From Snodgrassella alvi wkB2 (lineage in GTDB: Bacteria > Pseudomonadota > Gammaproteobacteria > Burkholderiales > Neisseriaceae): DNA of 64,000 nt. The notes beneath the pieces are model-generated. The model worked only from the letters and a program-made list of their open reading frames with translations, made no database searches and was not told where the DNA came from. Positions 4,462 through 60,595 of the stretch are shown here, one piece after another (position 1 is the first letter of the stretch; every line of letters begins with the position of its first letter). A program made the translations under genes and the position numbers. The stretch is from NCBI RefSeq assembly GCF_000600005.1, contig NZ_CP007446.1, positions 1,452,894 to 1,516,893 of the forward strand, given 5' to 3'.

Positions 4462-4466
4462 AAAAC

Positions 4467-4496
4467 AAAACAGATGGTTAGATAGCCATCTGTTTT
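4467..4496. terminator. Bidirectional hairpin between nnrD and the racemase gene
   Basis: Perfect 11-base arms (AAAACAGATGG and its complement) around an 8-base loop. A-rich and T-rich tails on the two sides suit termination of both convergent genes. Confidence 0.8.
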
Positions 4497-4531
4497 ATCA
4501 GCTTATCCGCTTTTATATTTCGGAAACTGCA

Positions 4532-5230: not shown

Positions 5231-5255
5231 GTTTTCCCCTTATTCGTTTAAAAAA

Positions 5256-5909: not shown

Positions 5910-5953
5910 GATTTTCTACCTGAAATATGGTCTGATAATCTGATTATATTGTA

Positions 5954-6949
5954 TTAATGAACATGCTGACCGGCAACAGAAGGGATACAGCATAAAAGAT
6001 TATTGCTGTGTTTATGGGCTGCGCTTTCTGTCTGTACCGTAACATGATGTATATCATGTCTGAGCAATACTTCTGCCAGTTCATTAACCAGTTTCTCTGC
6101 TTCCGTTATCGTTAATGTACCATCAACAACAATATGGCAGGACAAAGCATTCATATTGCTGGTAATGGTCCAGGCATGTAAATCATGTACAGCTTTAATT
6201 CCCGGCATATCCTGAATCACTCTGCCCAGCTGTTCCAGCTCAATTGCATCCGGTGTGCCTTCCATCAGAATACGCAAAGTGGTTTTCAGGATTCCGATTC
6301 CACTGTAAGCAATCAGGCAGGCTACCACTATACTTGCTACCGGGTCAGCCCAGCGCCAGCCAAACAGCATCATCAGTACAGCTGCGGCAATAGCACCCAC
6401 AGAACCGAGTAAATCACCCAGTACGTGTAGAAACGCTCCGCGCATGTTTACATTATGTTCTGTCTCACTACTGCTGTGCATATACCAGGCAATAATAATA
6501 TTTACCAGCAAACCAATCGTACTGATAACCAGCATGCCCCGGGTAGCGATATCCGGCGGATTAACAAAACGACCTATGGCTTCATAAACAATCATAACTG
6601 CAATTACCATTAGCGCCAGACCATTTACTGCCGCCGCAATAATTTCAAAGCGTTTATAACCAAAGGTCTGCCGACCGTTTACCGGCCGCTCACTCAGGTG
6701 AAATGCGATTAACGACAATGCCAGCGCCAGTGCATCCGAAAACATATGACCAGCATCCGACAGCAGTGCCAGACTATTGGTTAACCAACCACCAATAATC
6801 TCTACCACCATATATGCACCGATAATCAGCAGTGAAATACTTAAAACTTTTTTATCTGCACTGTGTGCACCAAGATGATGATGGTGATGGTGATGATGAG
6901 CTTCATCATGTTCATGTTCATGCTCATGTGTATGGTTATGTTCGTGCAT
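5954..6949 (-). CDS. Cation diffusion facilitator, zinc/divalent metal exporter with His-rich N-terminus
   Basis: Inner-membrane metal/proton antiporter of the CDF family (ZitB/CzcD branch), 331 residues. The first 30 residues are a metal-binding His-rich tail including a run of eight histidines. Six transmembrane segments follow, with the HxxxD metal-site pairs in TM2 (DAGHMFSDA) and TM5 (HVLGDLLGS), then a cytoplasmic ferredoxin-like domain (HDLHAWTI). The HxxxD pattern is the one associated with zinc transport. An AAAGGA ribosome-binding site precedes the ATG. The gene has its own promoter region in the 0.7 kb gap upstream; no metal-responsive operator was recognised. Confidence 0.92.
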   Translation of the reverse strand: MHEHNHTHEHEHEHDEAHHHHHHHHLGAHSADKKVLSISLLIIGAYMVVEIIGGWLTNSLALLSDAGHMFSDALALALSLIAFHLSERPVNGRQTFGYKRFEIIAAAVNGLALMVIAVMIVYEAIGRFVNPPDIATRGMLVISTIGLLVNIIIAWYMHSSSETEHNVNMRGAFLHVLGDLLGSVGAIAAAVLMMLFGWRWADPVASIVVACLIAYSGIGILKTTLRILMEGTPDAIELEQLGRVIQDMPGIKAVHDLHAWTITSNMNALSCHIVVDGTLTITEAEKLVNELAEVLLRHDIHHVTVQTESAAHKHSNNLLCCIPSVAGQHVH

Positions 6950-7646
6950 AGTATTCCTTTAAATATTGTCTGATACCATTAATACGTTAAACCCTGACAT
7001 ATGGTAAAAGTCAAATGTGAATATCAGCAGATTTCAGCTCAGAACATTCTGGAATCCATAGTTAATATTTATACATACCGGCAATAAATTTTTACGTAAG
7101 TTGATAATAGCAGAAAACACAGAAATTTTGCCGGTGTTTACTCAGGCTTTGTGCTGACAAATATCGATATCAGCAAAAGCAGTAAATATTTTTAATATGT
7201 TTATTATTTAAATAATAAATTTTTATTTATTAATTTCCTTACATTGTTTCACATATCAAGGTAAAATACTTGTTTGTACAAGTCATGTTCAGTGAGCTAC
7301 TGAATCATTAATAGACTTGAGAATTGACAGCCAATTCAGATTAAGCGAAAAGAATACATATTCCGGTTTGAAGTGTTTATATTTTATGAATATGTAGTTT
7401 TCATTCACACTGAGAATACTTGTTTATTCTGGTAATGTGAGATTTTTTGCAAGCTTATTCATAATACCGGATCATTGATTGATTATATGCTTTTACAAAA
7501 CGAATATTGTATGCATATATTAGCTGCCGGAAATAATCCGGATTTAAGCAAAAACATGAATTAACTGATTCTCAACTGTTGCTTTTCTTATTATTTATGT
7601 TTGGCATGGTTTAACAATCACTACTTTCTGACTGTTTATCTGTTTC
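6950..7646. other. Long divergent intergenic region between the CDF exporter and pacA
   Basis: About 700 AT-rich bases without a convincing gene. It must hold the promoters of the CDF gene (minus) and the pacA-pacB-ape1 cluster (plus). A TTGACA hexamer at 7324-7329 is a possible -35 element, but no good -10 lies 17 bases downstream. A 16-base inverted repeat at 7268-7283 is listed separately. No tRNA or recognisable RNA gene was seen. Confidence 0.6.
7268..7283. repeat. Short inverted repeat, possible operator
   Basis: ACTTGT and ACAAGT form perfect 6-base arms around TTGT. The core TACTTGTTT recurs at about 7408-7416, also in an inverted setting. It may be a regulator-binding site for one of the divergent promoters; the regulator is unknown. 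Confidence 0.3.
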
Positions 7647-9152
7647 ATGTTTAGTTTTATATCTATTGAATTCGGCCTTTCATTTATTGCCTTTTTCTGT
7701 CTTTACTGGCTATTGGGCAGCAAACCGAAACTGCAAAATCTGCTTTTACTGTGCACCAGTTATCTGATTGTTTATTTGTGCGGAAAAATACAGGCACTAA
7801 TTGCATTACTGCTATTCACGGTATTTATTTATGCCACATCTGTACGAATAGTTCATGCCGCTAAACCCAGAATATGGCTGATAACTGCAATCATATGCAC
7901 TATTCTGAATCTGGCATTATGGAAATATTTTGATTTTTTCCGTACGTCTGTCAGCTATGGCCTGGATAGTTTGAAACTGAGTTCCGACTGGCTGTCGGGT
8001 ATCATATTACCGCTTGGACTGTCCTACTACTCATTTCAGGCCATCAGCTATCTGGTTTCGCTTTATCAGGAGCGATGCCACAATCAGCCTGCCGGTAAAG
8101 TTTTTACATTACCGGGTCTGGCTCTGCATCTGGCTTTTTTCCCTACTATTACTGCAGGCCCGATTGCACGCGCCTACGATGCACGCGGGTTAACGGATAT
8201 ATATAAACAGCCCTGCGGCATGGCAACACAAATCTATACTCCGCAACCCCGCAGAATTCTGGCACCTACTCTGGCATTGTGTCTGATTGTAATGGCTTTA
8301 ATGAAAAACTGGTGGCTGTCCGGCTGGATTGCCGACAACTGGGTAGATCCGGTATTTGCTAATCCCATGCAATATCATAGTCTGGAAATACTGGCTGCCA
8401 TATATGGCTATACTGTTCAGCTGTTTTTTAATTTTTCCGGTTACAGTGACCTGATGATAGCGATTGGGCTGCTACTGGGATTTCGCCTTCCGGTAAATTT
8501 CCGCGCACCATTACTGGCACATAATATCCGCGAATTCTGGCTGCGCTGGCACATCAGCTTATCAACCTGGATACGGGATTATATTTATATCCCGTTGGGC
8601 GGCGGTCGACATGGAATGGCGCGCACCCAGCTTAACCTGCTGATAGCCATGGCATTATCCGGAATCTGGCACGGGACAGGCTGGCATTTTTTAATCTGGG
8701 GCTTATTGCATGCAGCCGGGATGATCTTGCTTAATCTGGGCGACTGGCTGTACAGTCGTCTGCGTCATTGTGAATTCAATAAAGCTCGCGACGGTTTGAG
8801 TAAAAGCAGCCGGCCAGCTAAAATTATCAGCATAGTTGTGACTGTACATTTTGTATGTTTTTGTTTTATTTTTTTCCGCGCACCTACACTTAATGATGCT
8901 CTGCTTTTGTTACACGCACTGTTTTACAACAATATCAATGTACCTCTGAGTACCAATCCGTTTTATTTTTTTAGTTTGTTATTGCTGGCATGGATACTGT
9001 ATCCATTTCTGGCAAAATTTACCAATATGTTATACAAGCGCGCGGATTCTCTGCCACGATACCGTCTGATTCTTCCTTTATTACTGTTAGTGGTTCTGGT
9101 ATTAATTTGCGCGCCAACAGGTATTCCGGGATTCATTTATGCCAACTTCTAA
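7647..9152 (+). CDS. pacA: Peptidoglycan O-acetyltransferase, membrane MBOAT component
   Basis: Integral membrane protein of 501 residues thought to move acetyl groups across the inner membrane for O-acetylation of MurNAc in peptidoglycan. It has the AlgI-type MBOAT signatures LRWHISLSTWIRDYIYIPLG and SGIWHGTGWHFLIWG, the latter with the conserved catalytic histidine near residue 341, and about ten hydrophobic segments. The MBOAT family also includes alginate acetylases. Assignment to PacA/PatA rests on the next two genes, an SGNH transferase-like protein and a clear Ape1 esterase, which together make an O-acetylpeptidoglycan cluster. It overlaps the next gene by 14 bases. The ribosome-binding site at the chosen ATG is weak. 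Confidence 0.85.
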   Translation: MFSFISIEFGLSFIAFFCLYWLLGSKPKLQNLLLLCTSYLIVYLCGKIQALIALLLFTVFIYATSVRIVHAAKPRIWLITAIICTILNLALWKYFDFFRTSVSYGLDSLKLSSDWLSGIILPLGLSYYSFQAISYLVSLYQERCHNQPAGKVFTLPGLALHLAFFPTITAGPIARAYDARGLTDIYKQPCGMATQIYTPQPRRILAPTLALCLIVMALMKNWWLSGWIADNWVDPVFANPMQYHSLEILAAIYGYTVQLFFNFSGYSDLMIAIGLLLGFRLPVNFRAPLLAHNIREFWLRWHISLSTWIRDYIYIPLGGGRHGMARTQLNLLIAMALSGIWHGTGWHFLIWGLLHAAGMILLNLGDWLYSRLRHCEFNKARDGLSKSSRPAKIISIVVTVHFVCFCFIFFRAPTLNDALLLLHALFYNNINVPLSTNPFYFFSLLLLAWILYPFLAKFTNMLYKRADSLPRYRLILPLLLLVVLVLICAPTGIPGFIYANF

Positions 9153-48081: not shown

Positions 48082-48118
48082 CAATTAAAATACAATTATT
48101 AACAATATGATTTGTTTA
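48082..48118 (+). repeat. Upstream element shared by both lipoprotein genes, copy 1
   Basis: Begins CAATTAAAATACAAT and continues with high similarity to 49570-49606. It contains TACAAT, a possible -10, about 40 bases before the start codon. Confidence 0.6.
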
Positions 48119-48135
48119 TTGAACTAAGGGCTCTT

Positions 48136-49329
48136 ATGAGATTGAAATTTACAAAAATAATATTAATGCTGGCTGTTGCCGGTATGGTTTCGGCATGTGG
48201 TAATAAAACTGAAAAATCCCCTGACAAAATGGTGCGCACTGGTATTCAGCGCATTATGACAGAAGACAATCAGTTTAATTTTAGTGGTTCTTATCAGACA
48301 GAATTTATTATTCAGAATAATGAAAATAAAAGTTCTTCAGAAATAACCGAACCAATAATTGCATCAGAAGTTTCTGCATCAGAAGAATATGATGATGATG
48401 ATACTTCAGAATTAACAGAGTATCACCGCAAACAAATGGATTTGTATAACAAATCTATAGGGAAATTTTTAGGACAATTCGGTAAATCTTTTTCCGTACC
48501 TTTCACTGGTGCTGTAGATATGAAAAAAGGGGTGATGGAAGTGATTCCTGAAGTCCGTTATGAAGATAAAAACGTACTGATTTCTTTTAAATTTCCTACC
48601 TATTTAGATTTTAATAATTTGTCCTTATATCTCGATGGTTCTGCAATTACACATTTGTCAGACACTATGCCTAACAATAAAATGGTAATTGGTGACAAAT
48701 ATATGCAATTCGCTGTACCGCAGGATAAAGCACAACACATACCTGTAGCAGATTTATTAAAAAGCTTACCTAAATCTGTAGATGACGGTTATGCATCAAT
48801 TGATCCGAGCGCATTCAAAAAAGTAAATGTCGACGAATTTGGAAAAACACTGGAAGCAAAATATCAGGTTAATCTGAATACAGACTATGCTTCAAGCCTT
48901 AAATATAATACTGTACTTCTACAAAGTCTTTCTAAGGCTCTAAAAGAGACAGCAGCCAAAGCTGATAAGAATAATAAATATAAACCAGAAGATTACGCTT
49001 TACTGGGGAATATAATTGACGCTTTAGCTTCAATTTATTCCGATAGTGATAATGCTCTTGCAGATACTCCTATGGGTGCTTATTTGGAGAAGCTCAAAAA
49101 TAAATCTAATCTAATGGTAAATAATTTCTACTTTGATTCAAAAGGTCGCATTATTGGTGTACGCTTTAAGACTGACCTTCCAATGGCAATAACAGGTATG
49201 GAAGAGCCAAAAGGAACAATCAGAATAGATTATAAATTTCGGATGGATTACACCGGAAGCCCTAAATTCACCATGCAGCCTACACCACAAAACTCAATCA
49301 ATATGGGATCTCGTCTTGGTTGGTACTGA
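48136..49329 (+). CDS. Lipoprotein of unknown function, paralogue 1
   Basis: A 397-residue lipoprotein with signal KIILMLAVAGMVSAC. I do not recognise the family. After the signal come SPDKMVRTGIQRI, NFSGSYQTEF, an acidic low-complexity stretch with four Asp codons (GAT)4 near residue 87, and a long mature domain. The core VPFTGAVDMKKGVMEVIPEVRYEDK reads like a beta-strand sheet of a periplasmic binding or sensing lipoprotein (LppX/LolA-like folds are a possibility). It is about half identical to the next gene over its whole length. Base composition is more AT-rich than housekeeping neighbours. The ATG at 48136 follows AAGGG; a TTG at 48112 would spoil the signal peptide. Confidence 0.8.
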   Translation: MRLKFTKIILMLAVAGMVSACGNKTEKSPDKMVRTGIQRIMTEDNQFNFSGSYQTEFIIQNNENKSSSEITEPIIASEVSASEEYDDDDTSELTEYHRKQMDLYNKSIGKFLGQFGKSFSVPFTGAVDMKKGVMEVIPEVRYEDKNVLISFKFPTYLDFNNLSLYLDGSAITHLSDTMPNNKMVIGDKYMQFAVPQDKAQHIPVADLLKSLPKSVDDGYASIDPSAFKKVNVDEFGKTLEAKYQVNLNTDYASSLKYNTVLLQSLSKALKETAAKADKNNKYKPEDYALLGNIIDALASIYSDSDNALADTPMGAYLEKLKNKSNLMVNNFYFDSKGRIIGVRFKTDLPMAITGMEEPKGTIRIDYKFRMDYTGSPKFTMQPTPQNSINMGSRLGWY

Positions 49330-49632: not shown

Positions 49633-50862
49633 ATGCGGTTAAATTTTAAAAAATTAATATTAACAATGGCTGTAGCCGGGATAGTTTCAGCATGCAGCCA
49701 CATAAATGACAATTCGCCGGATAAAATGGTGCGGACTGGTGTCCAGCAAATGATTTTAAAAGATAACCGCTTGAACTTCAGTGGTTCTTTTCAAGGAGAA
49801 TATCATATTAATCCTAATACAAACAATGAAGATGAAATTTCTTCTGATACATCTGAAATAAACAAAACTAATGAAACACATAACAATCTTCTAAATACTG
49901 CATCAAAATCACTACCTCAAACAGAAGCAGATGATGATGATGATGATGATGAATCAAAACCAAAAAATTCTTTGGCACCTTTTTTTGAGCAATTCAGTCA
50001 ATCCTTTTCAGTACCCTTTACTGGCGCTATAGATATCCGAAAAGGGCAAATGGAAATAATTCCGGAAGTTCGTTATGAAAACAAAAATGTACTGGTTTCT
50101 TTTAAATTTCCTACCTATATAGACTTCAAAAATCTATCTCTATACACAGATGTTTCCGCTATTACACATTTGCTAGATAAAATACCTCATACTAGAATGG
50201 TAATTGGTGACAAATATTTACAATTAGCTGTACTAAAATCTCAAATAAAAAATATGCCTTTATCCGATCTGTTAAAAAGCTTACCAAAATCAATTGATGA
50301 TGGTTATGCAGCAATTGATCGCGATGCATTCAAAAAAGTAAACGTTGATGAGTATGGAAAAACACTGAAAGCAAAGTATCAGGTTAATCTGAATGTAGAC
50401 TACGCTCTAATGCAGAAAATTGATAATACAATGCTTGAAAGCCTTTCAAAGGCTTTAAAAGAGGCTGCAGACAAAGCTGATCAGAATAGTAAATATAAAC
50501 CTGAGGATTATGCTGCATTACAAAATATAATTGACGAATTCACTTCTACTTTTAATTCTTATTTTTTTGATGAACATGATTCTGATGACAGCGGCGTTTT
50601 TAAAAATCCCTATTTTGGAGTTATAAAGCAATTCAAAAATAATCAAAACCCCATACAATATAATTATTATTTTGATTTGAAAGGAAGAATTATAGGCATC
50701 CGTGAACAGCTAGCATTTCCTAAGGAGGTGGAAAGTATAGATGGAACAGTAAAAATAGATACCAAAATCCACCTAAAATACACAACAAACCCTAAATTTA
50801 CTATGCAGCCACCTACGCCGCAGAATTCAATTAATATAATGTCTCGACCTGAGCTCAATTAA
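49633..50862 (+). CDS. Lipoprotein of unknown function, paralogue 2
   Basis: A 409-residue lipoprotein with signal KLILTMAVAGIVSAC. It is collinear with the preceding gene: SPDKMVRTGVQQM, LNFSGSFQGEY, FSVPFTGAIDIRKGQMEIIPEVRYENK, LLKSLPKSIDDGYAAIDRDAFKKVNVDEYGKTL and KFTMQPPTPQNSIN all have close counterparts there. Its acidic linker is longer, with seven tandem GAT codons (49930-49950) against four. The most variable stretch follows the signal peptide (residues ~60-115), the usual pattern for a surface-exposed or flexible tether. AAAGGGAC lies before the ATG. Function is unknown; it is convergent with the T6SS cluster. Confidence 0.8.
   Translation: MRLNFKKLILTMAVAGIVSACSHINDNSPDKMVRTGVQQMILKDNRLNFSGSFQGEYHINPNTNNEDEISSDTSEINKTNETHNNLLNTASKSLPQTEADDDDDDDESKPKNSLAPFFEQFSQSFSVPFTGAIDIRKGQMEIIPEVRYENKNVLVSFKFPTYIDFKNLSLYTDVSAITHLLDKIPHTRMVIGDKYLQLAVLKSQIKNMPLSDLLKSLPKSIDDGYAAIDRDAFKKVNVDEYGKTLKAKYQVNLNVDYALMQKIDNTMLESLSKALKEAADKADQNSKYKPEDYAALQNIIDEFTSTFNSYFFDEHDSDDSGVFKNPYFGVIKQFKNNQNPIQYNYYFDLKGRIIGIREQLAFPKEVESIDGTVKIDTKIHLKYTTNPKFTMQPPTPQNSINIMSRPELN
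49930..49950 (+). repeat. (GAT)7 microsatellite inside lipoprotein paralogue 2
   Basis: Seven tandem GAT codons encode a poly-Asp run. Unit changes stay in frame and would alter linker length only. The equivalent tract in paralogue 1 (48391-48402) has four units. Confidence 0.85.
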
Positions 50863-51315: not shown

Positions 51316-54006
51316 TTATATTGGCTGATTTTCGCTATTTGTTTCAGCTGCCACCTCTTTTAATGGTTCATCACTCAAAGTGATGACTACGCCTTGCTCT
51401 CCCAAATCAAGCTGGATATAGGCACTATTCTGACCTTGCTGCTTTTCCAGCAATAATTGTCTGGCCAGTTCGGGGACAATTTGCTGCTGCAACATCTGTT
51501 CAAAATAGCGTACGCCCAAATCATGACCGGCTGTTGTTTGCGCCAGCGCCACTACCAGTGTATTACTATACTCACAGGTAACAGCAAACTGAGCTGCAAT
51601 TTTAGCTGCAATGCGGTCTAGTTGCTGACGGATAATAATCTGCATATCGTCAGCAGATAACGGACGAAAAGCCAGTACATTCATACGCCCGAGCAAAGCA
51701 GGAGCAAGAACTTCCCGGATGGGCTGATCGACCAGTTCCAGTCGGGTTGGTAAATCGGCATCAGGAGCATTTTGTAAAGCTTCGCTGCCCAGATTGGATG
51801 TCATCAACAGAATGGTGTTTTTGAAGTTGATGATGCGCCCTTCTCCGTCTCGCATAACACCCTGGTCAAATACCTGATAGAAAATATTAAGCACATCCGG
51901 ATGGGCTTTTTCTATTTCATCTAGCAGTACTACTGAATAAGGACGCTTACGTACTGCTTCAGTAAGGACTCCGCCTTTGCCATAGCCCACATATCCCGGA
52001 GGCGCACCTTTAAGCTGAGCTACTGTATGTGATTCCTGATATTCAGACATATTGATGGTAATCATTGTGTCTTCACTACCAAAAAGTGATCTGGCCAGTG
52101 CTTTGGCTGTTCTGGTTTTACCAACGCCGGATGTACCTGTTAACAGGAATACTCCAAGCGGCTTGTTGGGTTCGCCAAGTCCGGCTTTCTGGGTACGAAT
52201 ATGATTAACAATACTACTAACGCTGTCTTCCTGACCAATTACCTCACTGTTAAGCTGTTCAGATAAGGTCATCAGACGCTCAATTTCATCATCCAGCATG
52301 CGACCGGCAGGAATGCCTGTCCATTCACTAATTACACTGGCAATGACTTGCTGATCCACATCCAGGCTAATGTTTTGCTGCAATTGCTGAAAAGACTGAT
52401 TATGTGTATGCAGATTGCTTTTATGCTCATCTTTTGTACGCGCATCCAGTACTGCCTGAGCAGCTTCCTGTTCCTGAACAAATTTTTGTTTTTCTTCTTC
52501 TATTTCCTGATCTAATTGCTGTAGCTGCTGCCGGCACTGCTCCAATCTTTCGTTATCTATCTGGTGTCCGAGAAGAATATCCTGTTGCAGACGGTCGATT
52601 TCTTCTTGAAGTGCGCTGTGCAGGGAGATTCTTTTAATCAGATTCAGTGGTAATGTTTGCATACCAAGTCTGACTTTAGCTGCAGCGGTATCCAGTAAAT
52701 CGATGGCTTTATCAGGAAGCTGACGATCCGGTAAATACCGGCGTGACAATGTAACAGCGGCTTTAATCGCATCATCTTTAATATGCACCTGATGATGTTC
52801 TGCATAGAGTTTAGCAATACCGCGCAGCATCTGACAGGCTTTTTCATCATCCGGTTCATCTACTTTTACTGGCTGAAAACGGCGCTCAAGAGCAGCATCG
52901 GTTTCAAAATATTGTTTGTATTCAGACCAGGTGGTTGCTGCGATAGTGCGCAACTGACCACGGGCAAGTGCAGGTTTGAGTAAGTTGGCTGCATCAGACC
53001 CTCCGGCCTGATTACCGGCACCAATAATGGTATGAGCTTCATCTATAAACAGGATGGTTGGTTCAGAAGCATGCTGAATGGCTTCGATTACCGTTTTCAG
53101 ACGCTGCTCAAATTCACCTTTCAAGCCGGAACCAGCCTGTAACAGTCCCATATCAAGAGCAAGAATATGGGTATTTTTCAGATGGCTGCCCACTTCGTCA
53201 TTGGCGATTTTCAATGCCAGCCCTTCAACAAGTGCTGTTTTACCTACTCCCGGTTCGCCAACCAATATTGGATTATTTTTACGCCGTCTGCTCAAAATAT
53301 CTTCTATCTGGCTGATTTCTTCATCCCGCCCGAAAATTGCATCAATATATCCGTCTCTGGCTCTTTGAGTAAGATCGATGGTAAAGCGCGACAAGGCTTC
53401 CTGTTCTGCCGGCGATTGTTTATCCTGTAAGTTACTGGTATTGAGTATATTCTGTGTGGCTGGTGTTTCAGCAGGTTCTGCTGTTTTACTATCGGCATCT
53501 ATTCTCTTGGTGAAGATCGCATCATTTTCTGTGTTTGCTTCAACTGAGTATTTATCCAGCCATCGTCCTGCTTCAGCCAGTTGTCCTGCTCTGAATATCA
53601 GTAACTGCCATAAATCTGTAAGTGTAAAGATGCTAGGAATTTTCTGGATAGCTTCAAGCAAATGCAATGAGCGGACTTCTTCTTGTCCGTGTTCAATAGA
53701 TGCCAGCATCCATGCCTGTTCTATCCATTTAAGTAATGCGCGTGAAAGCTCAGGTTTCTGAGGTACTCGCTGCCAGGGCAGTTTATCCAGTCCGGCCAGC
53801 AAGTCATCCCACAAACGGTTGACGTTGATTTCGTTCTGGCGCAATAAGAGATTCAGGTCATTATTATCTGTTTCAAGTAATTTGACGAGAAAATGTTCAG
53901 GCAATATTTCATGATGGCCACGGCTTAAACAGAAGTTAGCAGCCTCATTCAGTGCCCGTGCACAATTTTCATTGAGTTTTCTTAATAATTGCATTGAATC
54001 TTTCAT
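51316..54006 (-). CDS. tssH: T6SS AAA+ ATPase ClpV (TssH)
   Basis: Hexameric unfoldase that disassembles contracted TssB/TssC sheaths for recycling. The 896 residues comprise an N-domain (LNENCARALNEAANFCLSRGHHEILPEHFLVKLL), AAA1 with GEPGVGKTALVEG near residue 248, a coiled-coil middle domain, and AAA2 with LTGTSGVGKTRTAKALA near 623 and the pore-loop region KGAPPGYVGYGKGGVLTEAVR. The N-domain and the absence of ClpB-specific features fit ClpV. The frame continues upstream to 54039, but the ATG at 54006 follows GGAG and gives the usual MKDSMQLLRKLN start. A terminator-like hairpin ends only about 22 bases upstream, so expression may depend on readthrough from hcp. Confidence 0.93.
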   Translation of the reverse strand: MKDSMQLLRKLNENCARALNEAANFCLSRGHHEILPEHFLVKLLETDNNDLNLLLRQNEINVNRLWDDLLAGLDKLPWQRVPQKPELSRALLKWIEQAWMLASIEHGQEEVRSLHLLEAIQKIPSIFTLTDLWQLLIFRAGQLAEAGRWLDKYSVEANTENDAIFTKRIDADSKTAEPAETPATQNILNTSNLQDKQSPAEQEALSRFTIDLTQRARDGYIDAIFGRDEEISQIEDILSRRRKNNPILVGEPGVGKTALVEGLALKIANDEVGSHLKNTHILALDMGLLQAGSGLKGEFEQRLKTVIEAIQHASEPTILFIDEAHTIIGAGNQAGGSDAANLLKPALARGQLRTIAATTWSEYKQYFETDAALERRFQPVKVDEPDDEKACQMLRGIAKLYAEHHQVHIKDDAIKAAVTLSRRYLPDRQLPDKAIDLLDTAAAKVRLGMQTLPLNLIKRISLHSALQEEIDRLQQDILLGHQIDNERLEQCRQQLQQLDQEIEEEKQKFVQEQEAAQAVLDARTKDEHKSNLHTHNQSFQQLQQNISLDVDQQVIASVISEWTGIPAGRMLDDEIERLMTLSEQLNSEVIGQEDSVSSIVNHIRTQKAGLGEPNKPLGVFLLTGTSGVGKTRTAKALARSLFGSEDTMITINMSEYQESHTVAQLKGAPPGYVGYGKGGVLTEAVRKRPYSVVLLDEIEKAHPDVLNIFYQVFDQGVMRDGEGRIINFKNTILLMTSNLGSEALQNAPDADLPTRLELVDQPIREVLAPALLGRMNVLAFRPLSADDMQIIIRQQLDRIAAKIAAQFAVTCEYSNTLVVALAQTTAGHDLGVRYFEQMLQQQIVPELARQLLLEKQQGQNSAYIQLDLGEQGVVITLSDEPLKEVAAETNSENQPI

Positions 54007-54027
54007 TACGGCTCCGGCTAAATACAT

Positions 54028-54054
54028 AAAAAGGCGCACAGATGCGTGCGCCTT
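54028..54054 (-). terminator. Intrinsic terminator between hcp and clpV
   Basis: On the minus strand AAGGCGCAC and GTGCGCCTT form a GC-rich stem around six bases, followed by TTTTT. It sits directly after hcp and 22 bases before the clpV start codon. Confidence 0.85.
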
Positions 54055-54067
54055 GAGTTAATTAAAA

Positions 54068-54553
54068 TTAACGGTTCTCAACCCAGCTGTCGGAATGAAC
54101 AATATTGCCATCCTTGTAAGCCCAGGTGATTTTTTCGTAACGCAATTCCACTTCTTCAAGATGGTTATAGCGTTCTTTACTGGTTTCTTTAATGTTGTGC
54201 ATTTTAGGACGCACAGCCACTACTTTCACATTTTCTAGCAGGGTGTTGAAATATTCTTTCTCCTGACCTGCATCGTCAATGCGATACCATTTAAATTCCA
54301 GGGATTTAAGGTTCTGACCATTAGTTACTGCTTTGTAAAGATATGGTGAAGAAGCATCATATTCTTTTACAAAGGAAATAGGTTTGTGTACACGAGTACC
54401 TGTCAGTTTACCGGTATTGCCGTCAGTAGGAATATAAACTTCGTGATCGAATGCCAATACTTCTACTGAGCCTTCACGATTCTGTACAGTTACAGAGCCT
54501 TTAACCTCTGAACCACCGTCATCCTTGATCCATAAATAAGCAGGAATTGCCAT
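54068..54553 (-). CDS. hcp: T6SS tube protein Hcp (TssD)
   Basis: Forms the hexameric inner tube that is propelled out of the cell. The 161-residue product begins AIPAYLWIKDDGGSEVKGSVT, followed by VEVLAFDHEVYIPTD, THKPISF-like VHKPISFVKEYDASSPYLYKAV and LEFKWYRIDDAGQEKEYFNTLLENVKVVAVRPKM, all standard Hcp strands. The C-terminal EEVELRYEKITWAYKDGNIVHSDSW is also conserved. AAAGGA precedes the start. The terminator immediately after its stop suggests abundant short hcp-ended transcripts. Confidence 0.95.
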   Translation of the reverse strand: MAIPAYLWIKDDGGSEVKGSVTVQNREGSVEVLAFDHEVYIPTDGNTGKLTGTRVHKPISFVKEYDASSPYLYKAVTNGQNLKSLEFKWYRIDDAGQEKEYFNTLLENVKVVAVRPKMHNIKETSKERYNHLEEVELRYEKITWAYKDGNIVHSDSWVENR

Positions 54554-54587: not shown

Positions 54588-56198
54588 TTAGTCGGTATGA
54601 TTCATATCAACCAAGGTAATTTCGACACGACGATTTTTACTACGCCCTTGCGGGTCGTCGTTGGTTGCTATGGGTTTGCTATCCCCATATCCCTGTACAG
54701 TAAAATGGTCTTCCGGAAAGGTGGATGCACTCACTAGCCAGTCACGTACAGCTTCAGCTCTGTGAAATGACAGAGTTTTGTTGCTGGCAGCATTTCCGGT
54801 GTTATCGGTATGACCATCTATTAGTACTCTTTTATTCGGGTTCGCCTGTACCCAGGTTAATACCCCTTGTAAAACCAGTTTGGCATCCGCTTTAAGCTGA
54901 CTCTGACCTACGTCAAACAATGCTGTGGTATCTAAACGGATAATTTGTTTTTTCTGCTTCTCCATCTGGAAAGAATTTATGTCTTTATTGATAACTGCTA
55001 ATAATTCGGTAGCATGATATAAACCGAATCCCATTCTTCTGGGTTCACCGAATGTCTTATAGTCCTGTAATGTCTGCTGAATGATTTTTAAATTTTTAAT
55101 ACTGTCCAGACGTTCATTTTCAAGGTGCTGAGGTATCGCTATATATTGCTGATGAGCAGCAATAACTTCCTGCAGCCATTTTTTATTTTGAACAAACGAA
55201 TACCCAGTACCAATGAGAATGAACAGCAGGAAACAGTCAATTGCGTAACACAGATATTTTGCACCTTTACTTAAATAGTGCTGGCGTACAAAGCTATTCT
55301 CAATAACCGGAAAATTTTTCAGACCGTTAACTATAAAAGTATGAACCGGACTAACAAATCCTGTTTTTTCAATTTCAAATTTACGCCAGTCTGCTTGCTG
55401 ATTAGTATTGAAACTGTTTAACCAGACACATGACATCATATACAGAGAATGACGATATGATTTTTCCGGCAACAAATTTTTAATCACATATTTACTGAGC
55501 CATTGCTGATTCAGATAAAGTGTGGATGTGGTTCTATAATCCAGATGTTCCGGCTGTTGGGCATTCAAAGCTGCTCTGCTATCCAGCTGTTTTTGTAAAC
55601 AGGAAAAATACTCTTGCACATCAGTACGCTCCCTGCAAAGCTGATTACTATTGTTTTCAGGCCAGTAATCAAGATTTTCATTAAGTAGATCGGTATGGAT
55701 ACCCAATGTCAGCGGCAGGCGGCGTTTGTATGAAGCCTGAATGGTTTCGATTTCCTGCCGCCATTGTGAAATACGCTGCTCCAGTGCTGCCACATGAGGA
55801 TATTTATCTGGATTAAGTATCAAAAATATACCGTTAGCAATTTTATTCTGTTCATCCAGATTCTGATAAATACTGATTAACTGCGCACAGTCTTCGACCC
55901 TGATCCACATTGAATCACGCAACAGTCTCCAGCGTTCAGAAGATTCTATCCAATCAGATATATCATCGCCTGCTACGAGAATGATGCGCTGGGATTTAGG
56001 TATATTGTACAGACTTACTGCACTTTGCTTGCGAAACCAGAATTGATTCTGATACCACAGAAATCCGCATGCCAGTACTATGAGTATACTGAGGCATATT
56101 TTGATTACCCAGTATATATCCCAAATTTGCCAGATAAAATATAGCGACAGGCAAACAATCCAGACAAGCAGTAATGTGTAATAAATGCGTTTACTCAT
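54588..56198 (-). CDS. T6SS membrane protein with TssM-like N-terminus and OmpA-type peptidoglycan-binding C-terminus
   Basis: A 536-residue inner-membrane protein. Two N-terminal helices (residues ~9-27 and 31-49), a cytoplasmic region of about 260 residues, and a third helix (CYAIDCFLLFILIGTGYSF, ~318-336) resemble the topology of the N-terminal part of TssM/IcmF. I see no Walker motif and no large periplasmic TssM domain. Instead the C-terminus from ~420 is an OmpA/MotB domain: TTALFDVGQSQLKADAK, LIDGHTDNTGNAASN, LSFHRAEAVRDWLV and QGRSKNRRVEITLV. It lies between tssL and hcp. It is probably the peptidoglycan anchor of the T6SS membrane complex, comparable in role to TagN/TagP-type proteins or a shortened TssM. 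Confidence 0.75.
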   Translation of the reverse strand: MSKRIYYTLLLVWIVCLSLYFIWQIWDIYWVIKICLSILIVLACGFLWYQNQFWFRKQSAVSLYNIPKSQRIILVAGDDISDWIESSERWRLLRDSMWIRVEDCAQLISIYQNLDEQNKIANGIFLILNPDKYPHVAALEQRISQWRQEIETIQASYKRRLPLTLGIHTDLLNENLDYWPENNSNQLCRERTDVQEYFSCLQKQLDSRAALNAQQPEHLDYRTTSTLYLNQQWLSKYVIKNLLPEKSYRHSLYMMSCVWLNSFNTNQQADWRKFEIEKTGFVSPVHTFIVNGLKNFPVIENSFVRQHYLSKGAKYLCYAIDCFLLFILIGTGYSFVQNKKWLQEVIAAHQQYIAIPQHLENERLDSIKNLKIIQQTLQDYKTFGEPRRMGFGLYHATELLAVINKDINSFQMEKQKKQIIRLDTTALFDVGQSQLKADAKLVLQGVLTWVQANPNKRVLIDGHTDNTGNAASNKTLSFHRAEAVRDWLVSASTFPEDHFTVQGYGDSKPIATNDDPQGRSKNRRVEITLVDMNHTD

Positions 56199-56206
56199 TT
56201 GGTACC

Positions 56207-56848
56207 TTATCCAATACTGGCAACCAGATTACTGAGATATTTATTAAGCACCAGATATATAACTATAGTGAACACCAGAAAAGCTAAACACCAGCTCACT
56301 GTTGAAAAAGACCGTATAGTAATCGGGCGCAATTTTCGATCAGTCTGAAGAGAAGGAATAATTATTTCAGGCAGATGCGAATCAATTTTGGTGATGAGTT
56401 CATTACGAGCATGTGTTTCTTCGAATAAATATTTACCATTAAATCCAAGAGCAAATACCAGCTGCCAGACACTTAACAGCCAGAATGACGGATCCGGTTT
56501 ATGCAATTCAGTCTGAATATCTTCAAATAATTGTATACCAGCATCATATTCACCAAATTGGGATACCTGTAACGGGCTGCTTTCCCAAATTGATTTACTT
56601 TTGCTGTCTAAAAAGCGTAATGCAAGCTCGTCAACAAGTGCAAACAATGCATACTTTATTTGTTTTCGCACATGCTCAGGCAGGTGATTTTCACTCAGTT
56701 TCTGATCAAATTCTGAAACAAAATGAATAGCAAGCAACTGCACTTCATCCATATCCTGAATGGCATGTCCCATGCTTAAGCGCGTTACAAATAAAATATA
56801 ATTACGTAAATTTTCCCGTACGTAATCTGGAATTTCGTTATTCTTCAT
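56207..56848 (-). CDS. tssL: T6SS membrane complex protein TssL (DotU family)
   Basis: Inner-membrane component that connects the baseplate to TssM. The 213-residue product is a cytoplasmic hook domain followed by one C-terminal transmembrane helix (WCLAFLVFTIVIYLVLNKYL). KYALFALVDELALRFLDSKSKSIWESSPLQVSQFGEYDAGIQLFEDI and LSVWQLVFALGFNGKY match the DotU core. No peptidoglycan-binding domain is fused; the next gene carries one instead. The ATG at 56848 overlaps tssK by 11 bases; another ATG at 56860 is possible. Confidence 0.9.
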   Translation of the reverse strand: MKNNEIPDYVRENLRNYILFVTRLSMGHAIQDMDEVQLLAIHFVSEFDQKLSENHLPEHVRKQIKYALFALVDELALRFLDSKSKSIWESSPLQVSQFGEYDAGIQLFEDIQTELHKPDPSFWLLSVWQLVFALGFNGKYLFEETHARNELITKIDSHLPEIIIPSLQTDRKLRPITIRSFSTVSWCLAFLVFTIVIYLVLNKYLSNLVASIG

Positions 56849-58181
56849 TTGGCACCGCATATAATTCGATATTTAATCCATCAAATGAATTAGGTGAATA
56901 AATACAGCATGATCTGGCTGCTATCATGGCTTTAAAGCCCGGGTGCGACTTATCTAATGCAAAATAGGTAGCTTCTGAACGCATGGGTAACGCGCTGGGT
57001 AAACGCTGCATCATTCTTAATGGAATACCATTGGATGCTGACGGCAGAATTCGCTCAACATCATCAGGTGAACCAATCTTACATAGTTTCGGAAAGCGTT
57101 CCTGAAGTTCATATAACGGAACACTGGCACGAACGGAAATATAGTAATCTGTGTTTTCATCCAGACGTGCATCTAACAGATGACCAATCCAGCGGGTATT
57201 ACCAACTTTTTCAAGATCCACCAGTACCAGTACTGTAGGTATAACAGTATCCAGCAGCTCTATAAGCATTTCATTTAACCGGATGAATGTTGTACCTAAA
57301 TTAAACGGATCGTATTGCGGTATGTCTTTGATACTGGATTCAATTGAAAACGACAGCAGACTTCCAACCAAACGTGCTAGTAAAATGTAGTAGTTTTCTG
57401 GTGCAATATTTTTATGTGTTTGTAACAGCACCATTTCCGGTATAGACTGATTGAGTATGTTCAGCAGCCAGAATAATGAAATATCAGATACAAGAAAGTC
57501 TGCTGATTGCTGATTACGTTCTTTTCGTAATGAACCAAGACGCTGACTTTTATTAAGCAGAATTTGTATCTGTCTTGACAGCATCTCCATTAGAAAAATA
57601 TTGCTACCAATAAAGAATACTGGCGGTATGTATTGTGCATCAAGCTGCCAGATATTATTTTGATTTTTAATCAGACGAAGAATGGGTATTGCCAAAAAAT
57701 TCTGACGGTTTTCATGTGAGAATTTCAGGCTGAAATTTAATCTTTTTTCTGCAATTTCTGTTTGCTGGCTACCGTAAAGATCAGTAACCGAAACAAATTG
57801 TTTAGAAAATCGTAGTGGTGCATTACTGCTGTTTTCAAGCAGATTACTGCCTACGGTATTTAGTTCAGGTAATGTTAAATATACTGTTGTTTCGAGTATA
57901 TCATCCGGTAATTGTGACAAGTCACGGGCAGGTGGCAGAAACTGCATCTGCTGTGAATCAAACCAAGTACCATCCTGAAATGATACTGCACAATCCGATA
58001 ATTTAAGCTTTTTCAGAGTGAGACTATTAGTGTCTATTTCTATACGCATTACGCCCCATGGCATAATTCGCGTACACTGCATTATGCTAAAAGCATTTGC
58101 CTGTTGCAGTAATTCCTGTTGCTGGAAAATTTGTGGCAGCAGTAAGGTACCCTCGTACCAAATCGGATTGATGATTTTCAA
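56838..58181 (-). CDS. tssK: T6SS baseplate protein TssK
   Basis: Trimeric connector between the T6SS baseplate and the TssL/TssM membrane complex. The 447-residue product opens with INPIWYEGTLLLPQIFQQQELL, the conserved TssK N-terminus (P-x-W-x-x-G-x-x-L-x-P-Q-x-F), and continues MPWGVMRIEID, LSQLPDD and the mid-protein WLLNILNQSIPEMVLLQTHKNIAPENYYILLARLVGSL. The start codon is TTG, with AGG eight bases upstream; no ATG is available near it. It lies 27 bases after the PAAR gene. Confidence 0.93.
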   Translation of the reverse strand: MKIINPIWYEGTLLLPQIFQQQELLQQANAFSIMQCTRIMPWGVMRIEIDTNSLTLKKLKLSDCAVSFQDGTWFDSQQMQFLPPARDLSQLPDDILETTVYLTLPELNTVGSNLLENSSNAPLRFSKQFVSVTDLYGSQQTEIAEKRLNFSLKFSHENRQNFLAIPILRLIKNQNNIWQLDAQYIPPVFFIGSNIFLMEMLSRQIQILLNKSQRLGSLRKERNQQSADFLVSDISLFWLLNILNQSIPEMVLLQTHKNIAPENYYILLARLVGSLLSFSIESSIKDIPQYDPFNLGTTFIRLNEMLIELLDTVIPTVLVLVDLEKVGNTRWIGHLLDARLDENTDYYISVRASVPLYELQERFPKLCKIGSPDDVERILPSASNGIPLRMMQRLPSALPMRSEATYFALDKSHPGFKAMIAARSCCIYSPNSFDGLNIELYAVPNEE

Positions 58182-58537: not shown

Positions 58538-60070
58538 TTATTTTTTAGCTTTTGGCATTTGAGATACTAATGAAAGATTAATATCCATACCTTCAATCTG
58601 GAAGTGCGGAATGACAAATAGTTTAATTTTGAAGAAACCCGGATTATCTTCAATATCTTCTACTACTACTTTTGCCTGGCGTAACGGATGTGAAGCCTGC
58701 AGCTCATCACTTGGATCAGTCATTTCTGTCACCAGATTCTGTATCCAGTTATTCATTTCCACTTCCAGAACACGCCGGTCTTTTGTCATACCGATATTTT
58801 CGCGCTGAATCAGTTTCAGATAATGAGCCAGACGTGACAGCAGGAAAATATAAGGAAGACGTGAATTGATACGGCTATTGGCAGTCGCCTCTTTGGTATC
58901 GTATAGGGCTGGTTTTTGTGTTGAATTTGCAGAGAAGAAACATGCAAAATCATGATTTTTGTAGAACGATAATGGCACAAAACCCAGATTGGCAAATTCA
59001 AATTCACGTGTTTCAGGAATTAATACTTCCGTCGGAATTTTCATTTGTGCGCCGGAACCCAGATCATATAAATGAATCGGCAGATTTTCAATCAGTCCGC
59101 CGGCCTGCGGACCACGAATCTGAACACACCAGCCATTCTTAATAAAGCTTCTTACCATATTGGCTGCAAATGCAAAGGTGGCATTAGCCCACAAATAACG
59201 ATTGTGATCAGGACCTTTAACTTCTTCACTGTAATTGAAACTGCGTACCGGTACTGTTTCACTGCCATAAGGCAAACGTGCCAGAAAGCGCGGTAAAGTA
59301 AGACCGATATAGCGGGCATCATCAGTATTGCGGAAGCTGTTCCATTTGATGTATTCAGCACGGTCAAAGTAGTTGCCGATATCTTTGATTGAGGCAACTT
59401 CTTCCATTGTTTCTTTACCAAAGAATTGAGGACCTACAGAACCAATAAATGGCATATGTGCAGCAGCGGAAACTTTTGAAATATTTCTGAGCAGCTCAAT
59501 GTCCTGAGGGGAGCGGTCAAATTCATAAGCCGAAATGATTGAGGCAAAAGGCTGTCCGCCCGGGGTGTCATATTCATTGATGTAAGTATGGCTATACAGA
59601 CCGCTTTGGATGACTTCCGGTGAGTCTTCAAAATCCCGAATCAGAGCATCTTTAGAAACATCAAGTACATCAATTTTTACATTCTGACGAAAATCTGTAC
59701 GGTCTACTAAGAATTTCAGACCACGCCATGTACCTTCAATTGCCTGAAATTCAGGATGGTGAAGAATATTATCTAACTGATTGCTGATTAATTTGTCCAA
59801 CTTGGCAATATGGAAATCCAGTAAGGATTTATCCAGTCTGTCTACAGTTTGGGCACTGTCCTGAATCATTTTCAGGAATACGTTGATCGCTACTGAGATA
59901 CGTTCATTGGTAGCAGATTCAGATAATGCTGTATTATTGGTGTAATGGTCAAAAGTGGGAGCTGTAGAGACGGTATTCAGATTTATTTTATCAAATAATG
60001 ATTCATAAACAGACTGTTGAACAGCATTTTCTTTTTTAACGGAACCAGCATTCTGCATATTTTTTTGCAT
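58538..60070 (-). CDS. tssC: T6SS contractile sheath large subunit TssC (VipB)
   Basis: Forms with TssB the contractile sheath around the Hcp tube. The 510-residue product has IEGTWRGLKFLVDRTDFRQNVKIDVLDVSK, GQPFASIISAYEFDRSPQDIELLRNISKVSAAAHMPFIGSV, FAANMVRSFIKNGWCVQIRGPQAGGLIENLP and PTEVLIPETREFEFANLGFVPL, all canonical TssC blocks. The C-terminal HPLRQAKVVVEDIEDNPGFFKIKLFVIPHFQIEGMDINLSLVSQMPK is also typical. AGGAAA supports the ATG. It follows tssB by 21 bases. Confidence 0.96.
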   Translation of the reverse strand: MQKNMQNAGSVKKENAVQQSVYESLFDKINLNTVSTAPTFDHYTNNTALSESATNERISVAINVFLKMIQDSAQTVDRLDKSLLDFHIAKLDKLISNQLDNILHHPEFQAIEGTWRGLKFLVDRTDFRQNVKIDVLDVSKDALIRDFEDSPEVIQSGLYSHTYINEYDTPGGQPFASIISAYEFDRSPQDIELLRNISKVSAAAHMPFIGSVGPQFFGKETMEEVASIKDIGNYFDRAEYIKWNSFRNTDDARYIGLTLPRFLARLPYGSETVPVRSFNYSEEVKGPDHNRYLWANATFAFAANMVRSFIKNGWCVQIRGPQAGGLIENLPIHLYDLGSGAQMKIPTEVLIPETREFEFANLGFVPLSFYKNHDFACFFSANSTQKPALYDTKEATANSRINSRLPYIFLLSRLAHYLKLIQRENIGMTKDRRVLEVEMNNWIQNLVTEMTDPSDELQASHPLRQAKVVVEDIEDNPGFFKIKLFVIPHFQIEGMDINLSLVSQMPKAKK

Positions 60071-60091: not shown

Positions 60092-60595
60092 TTATTCTTT
60101 AGAAATGATCGGTGAGATTGCTTCAAGTTCTTTGCGCAACTCATCAGAAAGATTTTTGTCCTGCAGAATTTTTTCCAGTTCTTTGCGTAAAACTGCATTG
60201 TCAAGAATATTGGACTTCAAATCTCTCAGCAGATTTCGCATAGCTAGCAACGATTTCAGCTCAGGTACTTGCTGAACAATCTGTTCAGGGTGAAAATCTT
60301 TCATTGATTTAAATTCAAGATTCACAGGAATTTCGGAATTATCATCAGCCAGAGCATTTGGAACAGACAGTTTTACGGCTGGATTCATTTCAGCAAGCAC
60401 TGCATCAAAGTTGTTTTTATTAATTGAAACTTTTTCACGTTCTGCCAGCGGAGTATCGCTTTCTTTGAAGCTGAAATCGCCAGCCACTAATAAACGCAAA
60501 GGTAATTCAACTTGTTTTTTAGCGCCTCCTGTATGTAAATCCAGTTTAATATTGACACGTGCTGGTGGTACTTCGTTCTGAAAACTTTCTGACAT
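60092..60595 (-). CDS. tssB: T6SS contractile sheath small subunit TssB (VipA)
   Basis: The small sheath subunit, 167 residues. PPARVNIKLDLHTGGAKKQVELPLRLLVAGDFSF near residue 10 is the conserved TssB block, followed by REKVSINKNNFDAVLAEMNP, LEFKSMKDFHPEQIVQQVPELKSLLAMRNLLRDLKSNI and a C-terminal helical tail that interacts with TssC and ClpV. AGGAG precedes the start. It is the first gene of the minus-strand T6SS operon, which should be driven from the 580-base AT-rich gap upstream. Confidence 0.95.
   Translation of the reverse strand: MSESFQNEVPPARVNIKLDLHTGGAKKQVELPLRLLVAGDFSFKESDTPLAEREKVSINKNNFDAVLAEMNPAVKLSVPNALADDNSEIPVNLEFKSMKDFHPEQIVQQVPELKSLLAMRNLLRDLKSNILDNAVLRKELEKILQDKNLSDELRKELEAISPIISKE

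What the first reader, a model, noticed from the sequence alone, without database searches (positions are those of the whole stretch)
54588..56198. Compact T6SS protein combining TssM-like topology with an OmpA peptidoglycan-binding domain
The protein has three helices arranged as in the N-terminal part of TssM, no visible Walker motif, and an OmpA/MotB domain in place of the large periplasmic TssM region. It lies where a membrane-complex gene is expected, while no full tssM or tssJ is in the window. It could be a shortened TssM that anchors directly to peptidoglycan and so bypasses TssJ, or an accessory anchor used alongside a normal TssM encoded elsewhere.
Basis: partly seen in the sequence, partly recalled or inferred. 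Interest (0 to 1): 0.5.

Follow-up and report, generated by a model that had tools for sequence, protein, structure and literature searches.

The report
TagL cell-wall anchor of T6SS
This gene encodes TagL, a known accessory protein that ties a bacterial contractile toxin-injection machine to the cell wall; its membrane half appears to be a worn-down relative of TssM, another part of the same machine.

Summary
Window 54588-56198 (minus strand) encodes a 536-aa protein with two N-terminal membrane helices, a cytoplasmic region without a Walker motif, a third helix and a C-terminal OmpA domain. The window belongs to a Snodgrassella genome. tssM and tssJ are not missing: a tssM-tssJ set lies with vgrG, tssA, tssG and tssE near 1.01 Mb, and Steele et al. 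2017 describe two such S. alvi loci as halves of one system, "T6SS-2/3". The TssJ-bypass reading is therefore unsupported. The protein is TagL (SciZ), the known peptidoglycan anchor: TagL topology, TagL gene order, a short TssL beside it, and all six wall-binding residues named for E. coli TagL.

With the OmpA domain removed, TagL profiles align collinearly with independently collected TssM N-termini (hhalign Prob 97.5-98.6, E 6e-12 to 8e-16; reversed and permuted controls near nil). TagL is thus most likely a degenerate TssM paralogue. TagP, a published TssM-OmpA "TssM derivative", has an apparently separate origin (not proven). I found no statement of TagL-TssM homology in the papers I could search; the primary TagL papers were not held.

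The parts
54588..56198 (-). tagL gene, 536 aa: T6SS accessory peptidoglycan-anchoring inner-membrane protein (TagL/SciZ family)
   Evidence: gene order; one group with other TagL proteins
56130..56186 (-). predicted TM1 (residues 5-23)
   Evidence: hydropathy; orientation inferred
56061..56117 (-). predicted TM2 (residues 28-46)
   Evidence: hydropathy; orientation inferred
55284..56015 (-). cytoplasmic domain (residues 62-305), homologous to the TssM NTPase-like domain but without a Walker A motif
   Evidence: hhalign of this block alone: Prob 70.9, E 3.8e-5 (independent TssM set) and Prob 93.2, E 3.1e-7 (with Sci-type TssM added); not significant against the six Sci-type TssMs alone (Prob 2.8); no Walker A
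55191..55247 (-). predicted TM3 (residues 318-336)
   Evidence: aligns with TssM TM3
54972..55190 (-). post-TM3 helical segment ending in the GxGLYxG motif shared with TssM (residues 337-409)
   Evidence: BLASTP E 2.8e-4 to Rahnella TssM; profile hits to TssM-type ORFs E 1.3e-12 to 3.7e-4; N338, G392, Y394 invariant in 22 of 22 TagL
54630..54920 (-). OmpA/Pal/MotB-like peptidoglycan-binding domain (residues 427-523)
   Evidence: PF00691 E 5.3e-21; TagL crystal structure 7BBA matched at E 2.2e-28; D465 N473 L476 S477 R480 A481 invariant in 22 of 22
56207..56860 (-). tssL, short form without an OmpA domain; TagL's expected direct partner
   Evidence: DotU E 5.8e-26; TIGR03349 over cut-off; short-form model E 1.1e-29 but below its cut-off
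56838..58181 (-). tssK, baseplate subunit
58538..60070 (-). tssC, sheath large subunit
60092..60595 (-). tssB, sheath small subunit
54068..54553 (-). hcp/tssD, tube protein
51316..54039 (-). tssH/clpV, sheath-disassembly ATPase
   Evidence: TIGR03345 over cut-off

Best explanation
The protein is TagL, the accessory inner-membrane protein that anchors the TssJLM membrane complex of Snodgrassella T6SS-2/3 to peptidoglycan. Three helices hold it in the inner membrane. Its C-terminal OmpA-like domain binds diaminopimelate of the cell wall, and it is recruited through the adjacent short TssL, which has no OmpA domain of its own. The separately encoded TssM and TssJ still form the trans-envelope channel. 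Its membrane and cytoplasmic half is most likely a degenerate paralogue of the TssM N-terminus that has lost the P-loop and the whole TssJ-binding periplasmic part and carries an OmpA domain instead; the TssM-like fold is plausibly how it docks on TssL. Shown here: gene, topology by hydropathy, conserved wall-binding residues, synteny, a separate tssM-tssJ, and sequence homology to TssM. Taken from E. coli work: TssL binding and wall binding. Inferred: docking on TssL in the manner of TssM.
For: The two-TM / cytoplasmic / TM3 / periplasmic-OmpA topology is the published topology of EAEC TagL. Gene order tssB-C-K-L-X-hcp-tssH is found in Lelliottia, Pantoea, Rahnella and E. coli; tssK-L-X-hcp-tssH in Caballeronia, Citrobacter, Cronobacter, a second Rahnella and Klebsiella (in the Pantoea record no tssH is listed). 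The Neisseria T6SS-A gene in this place is named tagL. All six residues named for wall binding by EAEC TagL are invariant in 22 of 22 aligned TagL. The E. coli member of that set (L053) matches the TagL structure 7BBA at E 1.7e-66. TagL incl. Snodgrassella is one side of a branch with 99-100 support in three trees. A separate tssM and tssJ are present. Another TssL of this genome, between TssJ and TssM of the first system, is a long form with OmpA. Homology to TssM: hhalign Prob 97.5, E 5.6e-12 over 297 columns against 15 TssM/IcmF N-termini found by TIGR03348, and Prob 98.6, E 8.1e-16 with six Sci-type TssMs added; reversed profiles Prob 2.2 or less; 60 column permutations of each set reach at most score 19.3 against 100.3 and 17.1 against 130.0; eight other families Prob 0.5 or less.
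Against: The N-terminal half of the Snodgrassella protein is only 16-20% identical to the distant TagL and sits on a long stem (1.8-2.2 changes per column). BLASTP of residues 1-415 against the E. coli TagL gives only E 0.013 over residues 325-410. The cytoplasmic block alone is not significant against the six Sci-type TssMs (Prob 2.8); with inserts kept, that set aligned only over 308-405 (Prob 96.4, 96 columns). The N-terminal hairpin (residues 1-61) is not significant against any set (Prob 10.1 or less). Pfam IcmF-related_N reaches only 1 of 22 TagL, at E 0.033, and not the window protein; DUF4131 (15 of 22, best E 0.0021) and DUF4153 (5 of 22, best E 2.8e-4) match weakly, in the window protein over the N-terminal hairpin and below cut-off. 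The AlphaFold model is poor (mean pLDDT 46.8) and its Foldseek matches are uninformative. A TagL N-terminal profile finds no solved TssM structure. No interaction was tested.
Confidence: 0.93

Rival explanations
1. A shortened TssM that anchors directly to peptidoglycan and replaces TssM and TssJ in this system.
For: N-terminal homology to TssM; no tssM or tssJ in the window.
Against: A tssM and tssJ lie with vgrG, tssA, tssG and tssE at about 1.01 Mb; the S. alvi paper describes two complementary loci as one system. Lelliottia, Pantoea and Rahnella loci with this gene also have an annotated full-size IcmF/TssM gene.
Confidence: 0.02
2. A TagP, i.e. the published 'TssM derivative carrying a peptidoglycan-binding domain', rather than TagL.
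For: Same domain logic; TagP is described as a TssM with the peptidoglycan-binding domain in place of the periplasmic part. A single origin of TagL and the TagP-like protein of G350 is not rejected (AU p 0.133 and 0.083).
Against: The window protein groups with TagL incl. the E. coli protein, while the TagP-like fusion groups with an ordinary TssM (98/92; 89/94 and 87/91). The fusion keeps Walker A and over-threshold IcmF-related Pfam domains; the window protein has neither. Gene order is that of TagL.
Confidence: 0.04
3. TagL whose N-terminus only converged on TssM topology, without common descent.
For: Aligned identity is only 10-15% in the long profile alignments; the model is too poor for a fold comparison.
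Against: Collinear profile alignment over about 300 columns with strong scores against reversed, permuted and other-family controls; shared motif around GxGLYxG after TM3.
Confidence: 0.06

Closest known systems
TagL / SciZ of enteroaggregative E. coli Sci-1 T6SS
   Same: Topology, C-terminal OmpA domain with the same wall-binding residues, position between tssL and hcp in the E. coli record examined, short TssL next to it
   Different: N-terminal half strongly diverged; lacks the proline-rich linker that follows the post-TM3 segment in most of the non-Snodgrassella TagL aligned; tssM/tssJ encoded in a second locus about 0.5 Mb away
TagL of Neisseria T6SS-A (N. subflava)
   Same: tssH-tssD-tagL-tssL-tssK block with tssM elsewhere on the chromosome; passages of PMC13375697 and PMC10210955 seen
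   Different: Its sequence was not compared here; tssB and tssC are on the other strand there
TagP of Pseudomonas putida K1-T6SS
   Same: TssM N-terminal part followed by a peptidoglycan-binding domain (passages of PMC10433429 and PMC5363822)
   Different: P. putida TagP itself was not compared; the TagP-like protein seen here (G350) keeps Walker A and recognisable IcmF domains and branches with TssM; TagL does not
Long-form ('evolved') TssL with OmpA domain, e.g. that of the first T6SS of this genome
   Same: Solves the same task, wall anchoring by an OmpA domain
   Different: OmpA domain fused to DotU/TssL instead of to a TssM-like part
TssM / IcmF
   Same: Homologous N-terminal membrane and cytoplasmic part
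   Different: No Walker A and no IcmF-related, IcmF_helical or IcmF_C domains; OmpA domain instead

Membership tests
TagL | C-terminal OmpA/Pal/MotB domain (PF00691) | tested here: met
   E 5.3e-21, residues 427-523
TagL | Two N-terminal TM helices, cytoplasmic domain, third TM, periplasmic C-terminus | tested here: met
   hydropathy only, (at the 1.4 threshold the third helix passes in the window protein but not in its five close relatives of that run); sidedness not tested
TagL | Wall-binding residues equivalent to EAEC D486, N494, L497, S498, R501, A502 | tested here: met
   D465, N473, L476, S477, R480, A481, same spacing, invariant in 22 of 22
TagL | Encoded in a T6SS cluster beside a short TssL | tested here: met
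TagL | Descent with E. coli TagL | tested here: met
   TagL rows one side of a branch, 100/99, 100/100 and 100/99 (unrooted); the E. coli row matches 7BBA
TagL | Direct interaction with TssL and peptidoglycan | not testable with these tools
   known for EAEC from the literature
TssM | Homology of N-terminal membrane and cytoplasmic region | tested here: met
   not significant for the first two helices taken alone
TssM | TIGR03348 match and IcmF-related/IcmF_helical/IcmF_C domains incl. TssJ-binding part | tested here: not met
   no match of TIGR03348 at the window's coordinates; no such Pfam domains
TssM | Walker A motif | tested here: not met
   but six of six Sci-type TssMs also lack it, so not decisive
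TagP | TssM derivative with recognisable IcmF domains plus OmpA domain | tested here: not met
   no IcmF Pfam domain
TagP | Common origin with TagP-like fusion | tested here: inconclusive
   free trees separate them; AU p 0.133 and 0.083; only one TagP-like sequence available

The most novel reading that the evidence does not exclude
TagL as a family is a degenerate TssM paralogue: an ancestral TssM N-terminus that swapped its TssJ-binding periplasmic arm for an OmpA domain. It docks on TssL through the surface TssM uses, so that TssM-like subunits with two different periplasmic arms (to TssJ and to the wall) share one membrane complex. TagP would be a second, independent invention of the same design.
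Probability: 0.4. Interest if true: 0.5.

Novelty: new member of a known kind. Interest (0 to 1): 0.33.

Why it matters
The gene itself is ordinary: a known anchor, whose partners are encoded elsewhere in the genome. It names the likely anchor of the Snodgrassella T6SS-2/3, whose publication does not use the word OmpA in its main text. The homology of TagL to TssM, if it holds, suggests how TagL recognises TssL and where it sits in the membrane complex, and it would put TagL and TagP under one design principle. That is testable with a TssL-TagL structure.

Tried and rejected
Rejected: TssJ bypass (tssM and tssJ found). Rejected: orphan or partial system (complementary locus found).

Led nowhere: AlphaFold of residues 1-415 with seven sequences gave mean pLDDT 46.8; its alternating strands and helices at residues 72-167 would fit a degenerate NTPase fold but are too uncertain to use. 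The Foldseek search with it gave no match at E 0.001 or better. A TagL profile against solved structures gave nothing better than E 0.16. A search for TssM-OmpA fusions on plasmids found 0 of 497 matching records with one place covering 80% of the query.

Weak points handled: the TssMs retrieved with the TagL profile could bias the comparison (as, Prob 99.2 and 98.1 with them), so a set found by TIGR03348 was made, leaving out two loci of genomes also hit (L076, L086). Of 26 phmmer-confirmed ORFs I used 15; the other nine I left out by eye as short or of doubtful start (L088 with 1071 aa, and L098 and L104 with a Walker A match, are among them). Several of the 15 start close to the Walker motif and lack the hairpin. 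L061 dropped out of the TssM set because my search string did not fit the Met-trimmed frame. The Walker A pattern occurs in 1 of 22 TagL (L074, residue 311, just before TM3; taken as chance). The first trees cut the OmpA domain crudely, by length; one search repeats the test with an alignment-based cut. In one search the TssM end cut fell back to 600 aa for 7 of 16 TssMs. Of 22 TagL, 19 were used and 13. All three trees flag the Snodgrassella rows as odd in letter make-up. Five of the eight other-family control profiles hold 6 or fewer sequences. Neighbours of the TagL genes in L051, L052 and L066 were not established.

Full report
What is there. The ORF at 54588-56198, minus strand, is 536 aa long. 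It lies between a short-form tssL and hcp in the block tssB-tssC-tssK-tssL-X-hcp-tssH. Hydropathy gives helices at residues 5-23, 28-46 and 318-336. No Walker A pattern is found. The only Pfam domain over its cut-off is OmpA, residues 427-523. Relatives at 77-85% identity occur in 6 loci, five from Snodgrassella records and one from a Neisseriaceae MAG, with the same neighbours in 6 of 6 (tssH cut by the contig end in L010). The window therefore comes from a Snodgrassella genome or a very near one (2.53 Mb, one contig).

TssM and TssJ are elsewhere, not absent. TIGR03348 finds TssM at 142.9 kb and 1.0148 Mb; TIGR03352 finds TssJ at 138.8 kb and 1.0212 Mb. The 1.01 Mb locus reads vgrG, a Tla1-like chaperone, a TPR-like protein, a two-helix protein, tssM, tssA, a TssF-like ORF, tssG, tssJ, tssE (TssF was not scanned and is named from position and recall; the Tla1 and TssG matches are somewhat below their cut-offs). 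The TssM match there is below the family cut-off and covers profile positions 440-1167, but Pfam finds IcmF-related, IcmF_helical and IcmF_C over cut-off. Steele et al. 2017 (PMC5727410, passages) state that the S. alvi wkB2 loci T6SS-2 and T6SS-3 hold complementary gene sets that together encode a second system. The window block and the 1.01 Mb block fit that description; that they are those two loci is my inference. The paper's main text does not contain the word OmpA.

Identity. The published EAEC TagL has two N-terminal helices, a cytoplasmic domain, a third helix and a periplasmic OmpA-type domain, and binds TssL (PMC8253398, first of four parts of the text and passages). The window protein has this layout. 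Its OmpA domain matches the TagL crystal structure 7BBA at E 2.2e-28, among many OmpA-type structures. D465, N473, L476, S477, R480 and A481 sit at the spacing of EAEC D486, N494, L497, S498, R501 and A502 and are invariant in 22 of 22 aligned TagL. Homologues annotated 'OmpA family protein' follow tssL (or a DotU-family gene) directly in Lelliottia, Pantoea, Rahnella, Caballeronia, E. coli, Citrobacter, Cronobacter and Klebsiella, with hcp next, and in Paraburkholderia and B. ambifaria, where tssB comes next. Neisseria T6SS-A has tagL in this place with tssM elsewhere (PMC13375697 and PMC10210955, passages). The TssL gene that lies between TssJ and TssM of the first system of this genome is a long form with its own OmpA domain. 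So one genome appears to use both known anchoring solutions.

Kinship with TssM. BLASTP of residues 1-415 against ORFs of the loci then held ranked TagL first; the Rahnella TssM (residues 314-403 on 374-462, E 2.8e-4) came above two of the TagL. The Pantoea TssM aligned at the same place (E 0.40) and the Lelliottia one nearby (E 4.8), in a range where chance hits also appear. A 16-row profile without the OmpA domain (A1), searched in 274 genomes of the class, hit 9 genomes: the own TagL, and in eight others nine ORFs. Eight of these look like TssM or TssM pieces (open frames 789-1337 aa, E 1.3e-12 to 3.7e-4, over TM3 and the following segment; read; those of G221 and G233 were also found by TIGR03348, those of G319, G351, G354 and G361 by similarity to the fusion, and that of L063 by Pfam; L060 was judged by eye). 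The ninth is an 864-aa ORF in G350. It holds IcmF-related_N, the start of IcmF-related, an intact Walker A and a C-terminal OmpA domain, and follows tssK, tssL, tssM and a TagF-like ORF (the tssK, tssL and TagF labels are from sight and recall). This is the TagP design: a review and the P. putida K1 paper call TagP a TssM derivative with a peptidoglycan-binding domain (PMC10433429 and PMC5363822, passages).

Profile-profile tests. TagL (22 rows, OmpA removed) against 15 TssM/IcmF N-termini found by TIGR03348: Prob 97.5, E 5.6e-12, 297 columns, 107-409 on 197-539. Against six Sci-type TssMs chosen by genome position: Prob 95.7, E 1e-8, 72-405 on 124-451. Against both: Prob 98.6, E 8.1e-16, 330 columns. 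The cytoplasmic block alone gives Prob 70.9, 2.8 and 93.2 in these three sets; the TM3-and-after block 93.6, 92.8 and 95.0; the N-terminal hairpin 7.6, 0.4 and 10.1. Reversed profiles give at most 2.2. In an earlier run that kept inserts, the six Sci-type TssMs aligned only over 308-405 (Prob 96.4). Sixty column permutations reach at most 19.3 against 100.3 for the first set and 17.1 against 130.0 for the third; TssL, TssK, TssC, TssH, a two-helix T6SS protein, usher, MCP and MFS profiles (2 to 13 sequences each) give at most Prob 0.5. E-values are for single comparisons. I take common descent of the cytoplasmic-to-post-TM3 region as well supported; for the first two helices it rests on position alone. 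Pfam's own IcmF-related_N model sees only 1 of 22 TagL, at E 0.033.

Phylogeny. TagL is one side of a branch in trees of 41, 30 and 30 rows (100/99, 100/100, 100/99), and the G350 fusion branches with its neighbouring TssM (98/92, 89/94, 87/91). Forcing TagL plus the fusion together is not rejected (AU p 0.133, 0.083). The trees are unrooted and the Snodgrassella rows have a long stem and unusual letter make-up. Two origins are favoured, not shown.

How it works, most likely. TagL is held to TssL in the inner membrane and grips diaminopimelate of the wall with its OmpA domain, so that the complex stays put when the sheath contracts; wall and TssL binding are known for E. coli and inferred here. 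The TssM-like half suggests that TagL meets TssL as TssM does; this is inference.

What is known. TagL, its topology and role are known. I found no statement that TagL is homologous to TssM in the listings of searches or in what I read. Aschtgen et al. 2010 (both papers) and Santin et al. 2019 were not held, so it may be in print.

Limits. The structure model was too poor for a fold test. Only one TagP-like sequence was available; other short open frames (373 to 935 aa) matching the fusion's TssM part were not examined for an OmpA domain. In the order, 148 of 149 other genomes had some match to the window protein, mostly to the OmpA domain; in the listed rows only two (G074, G099) begin before residue 395 (list truncated).

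Noticed in passing
L064:13056-15542 (G350), with TssM at L064:8094-12092: An 828-aa TssM-OmpA fusion (TagP-like) with intact Walker A, second gene after an ordinary tssM. No record in the plasmid collection covers 80% of it in one place; it was the only such ORF I recognised among matches from 274 class genomes, where other short frames were not examined.
   Followed up: yes
L014:342-3741 and 3765-8168: Four tandem 250-251-aa lipoprotein-like ORFs, very similar by eye, beside a 1467-aa ORF and a Tla1-like chaperone by vgrG of T6SS-2/3; Pantoea and Rahnella have 4 and 5 DUF3304 genes near vgrG, next to a DUF2235 gene. Looks like a multiplied effector-immunity array.
   Followed up: no
L014:12551-13672: A 373-aa protein with two predicted N-terminal helices (by eye) directly upstream of tssM, with similar-sized genes in the same place in Pantoea (L048), Rahnella (L050) and Lelliottia (L047); no Pfam hit over cut-off in the two tested, and not related to TagL by profile.
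   Followed up: partly
window 48112-49329 and 49633-50862; L015:13695-14429: Adjacent, by eye paralogous, lipoprotein-like ORFs of about 405 aa, with a shorter relative elsewhere in the genome; no Pfam or NCBIfam match for the one scanned (49633-50862).
   Followed up: no
L014:13694-16936: The T6SS-2/3 TssM matches TIGR03348 only from position 440 on and lacks Walker A, as do the five other Sci-type TssMs examined; in these systems both TssM and TagL seem to have a degenerate cytoplasmic domain.
   Followed up: partly
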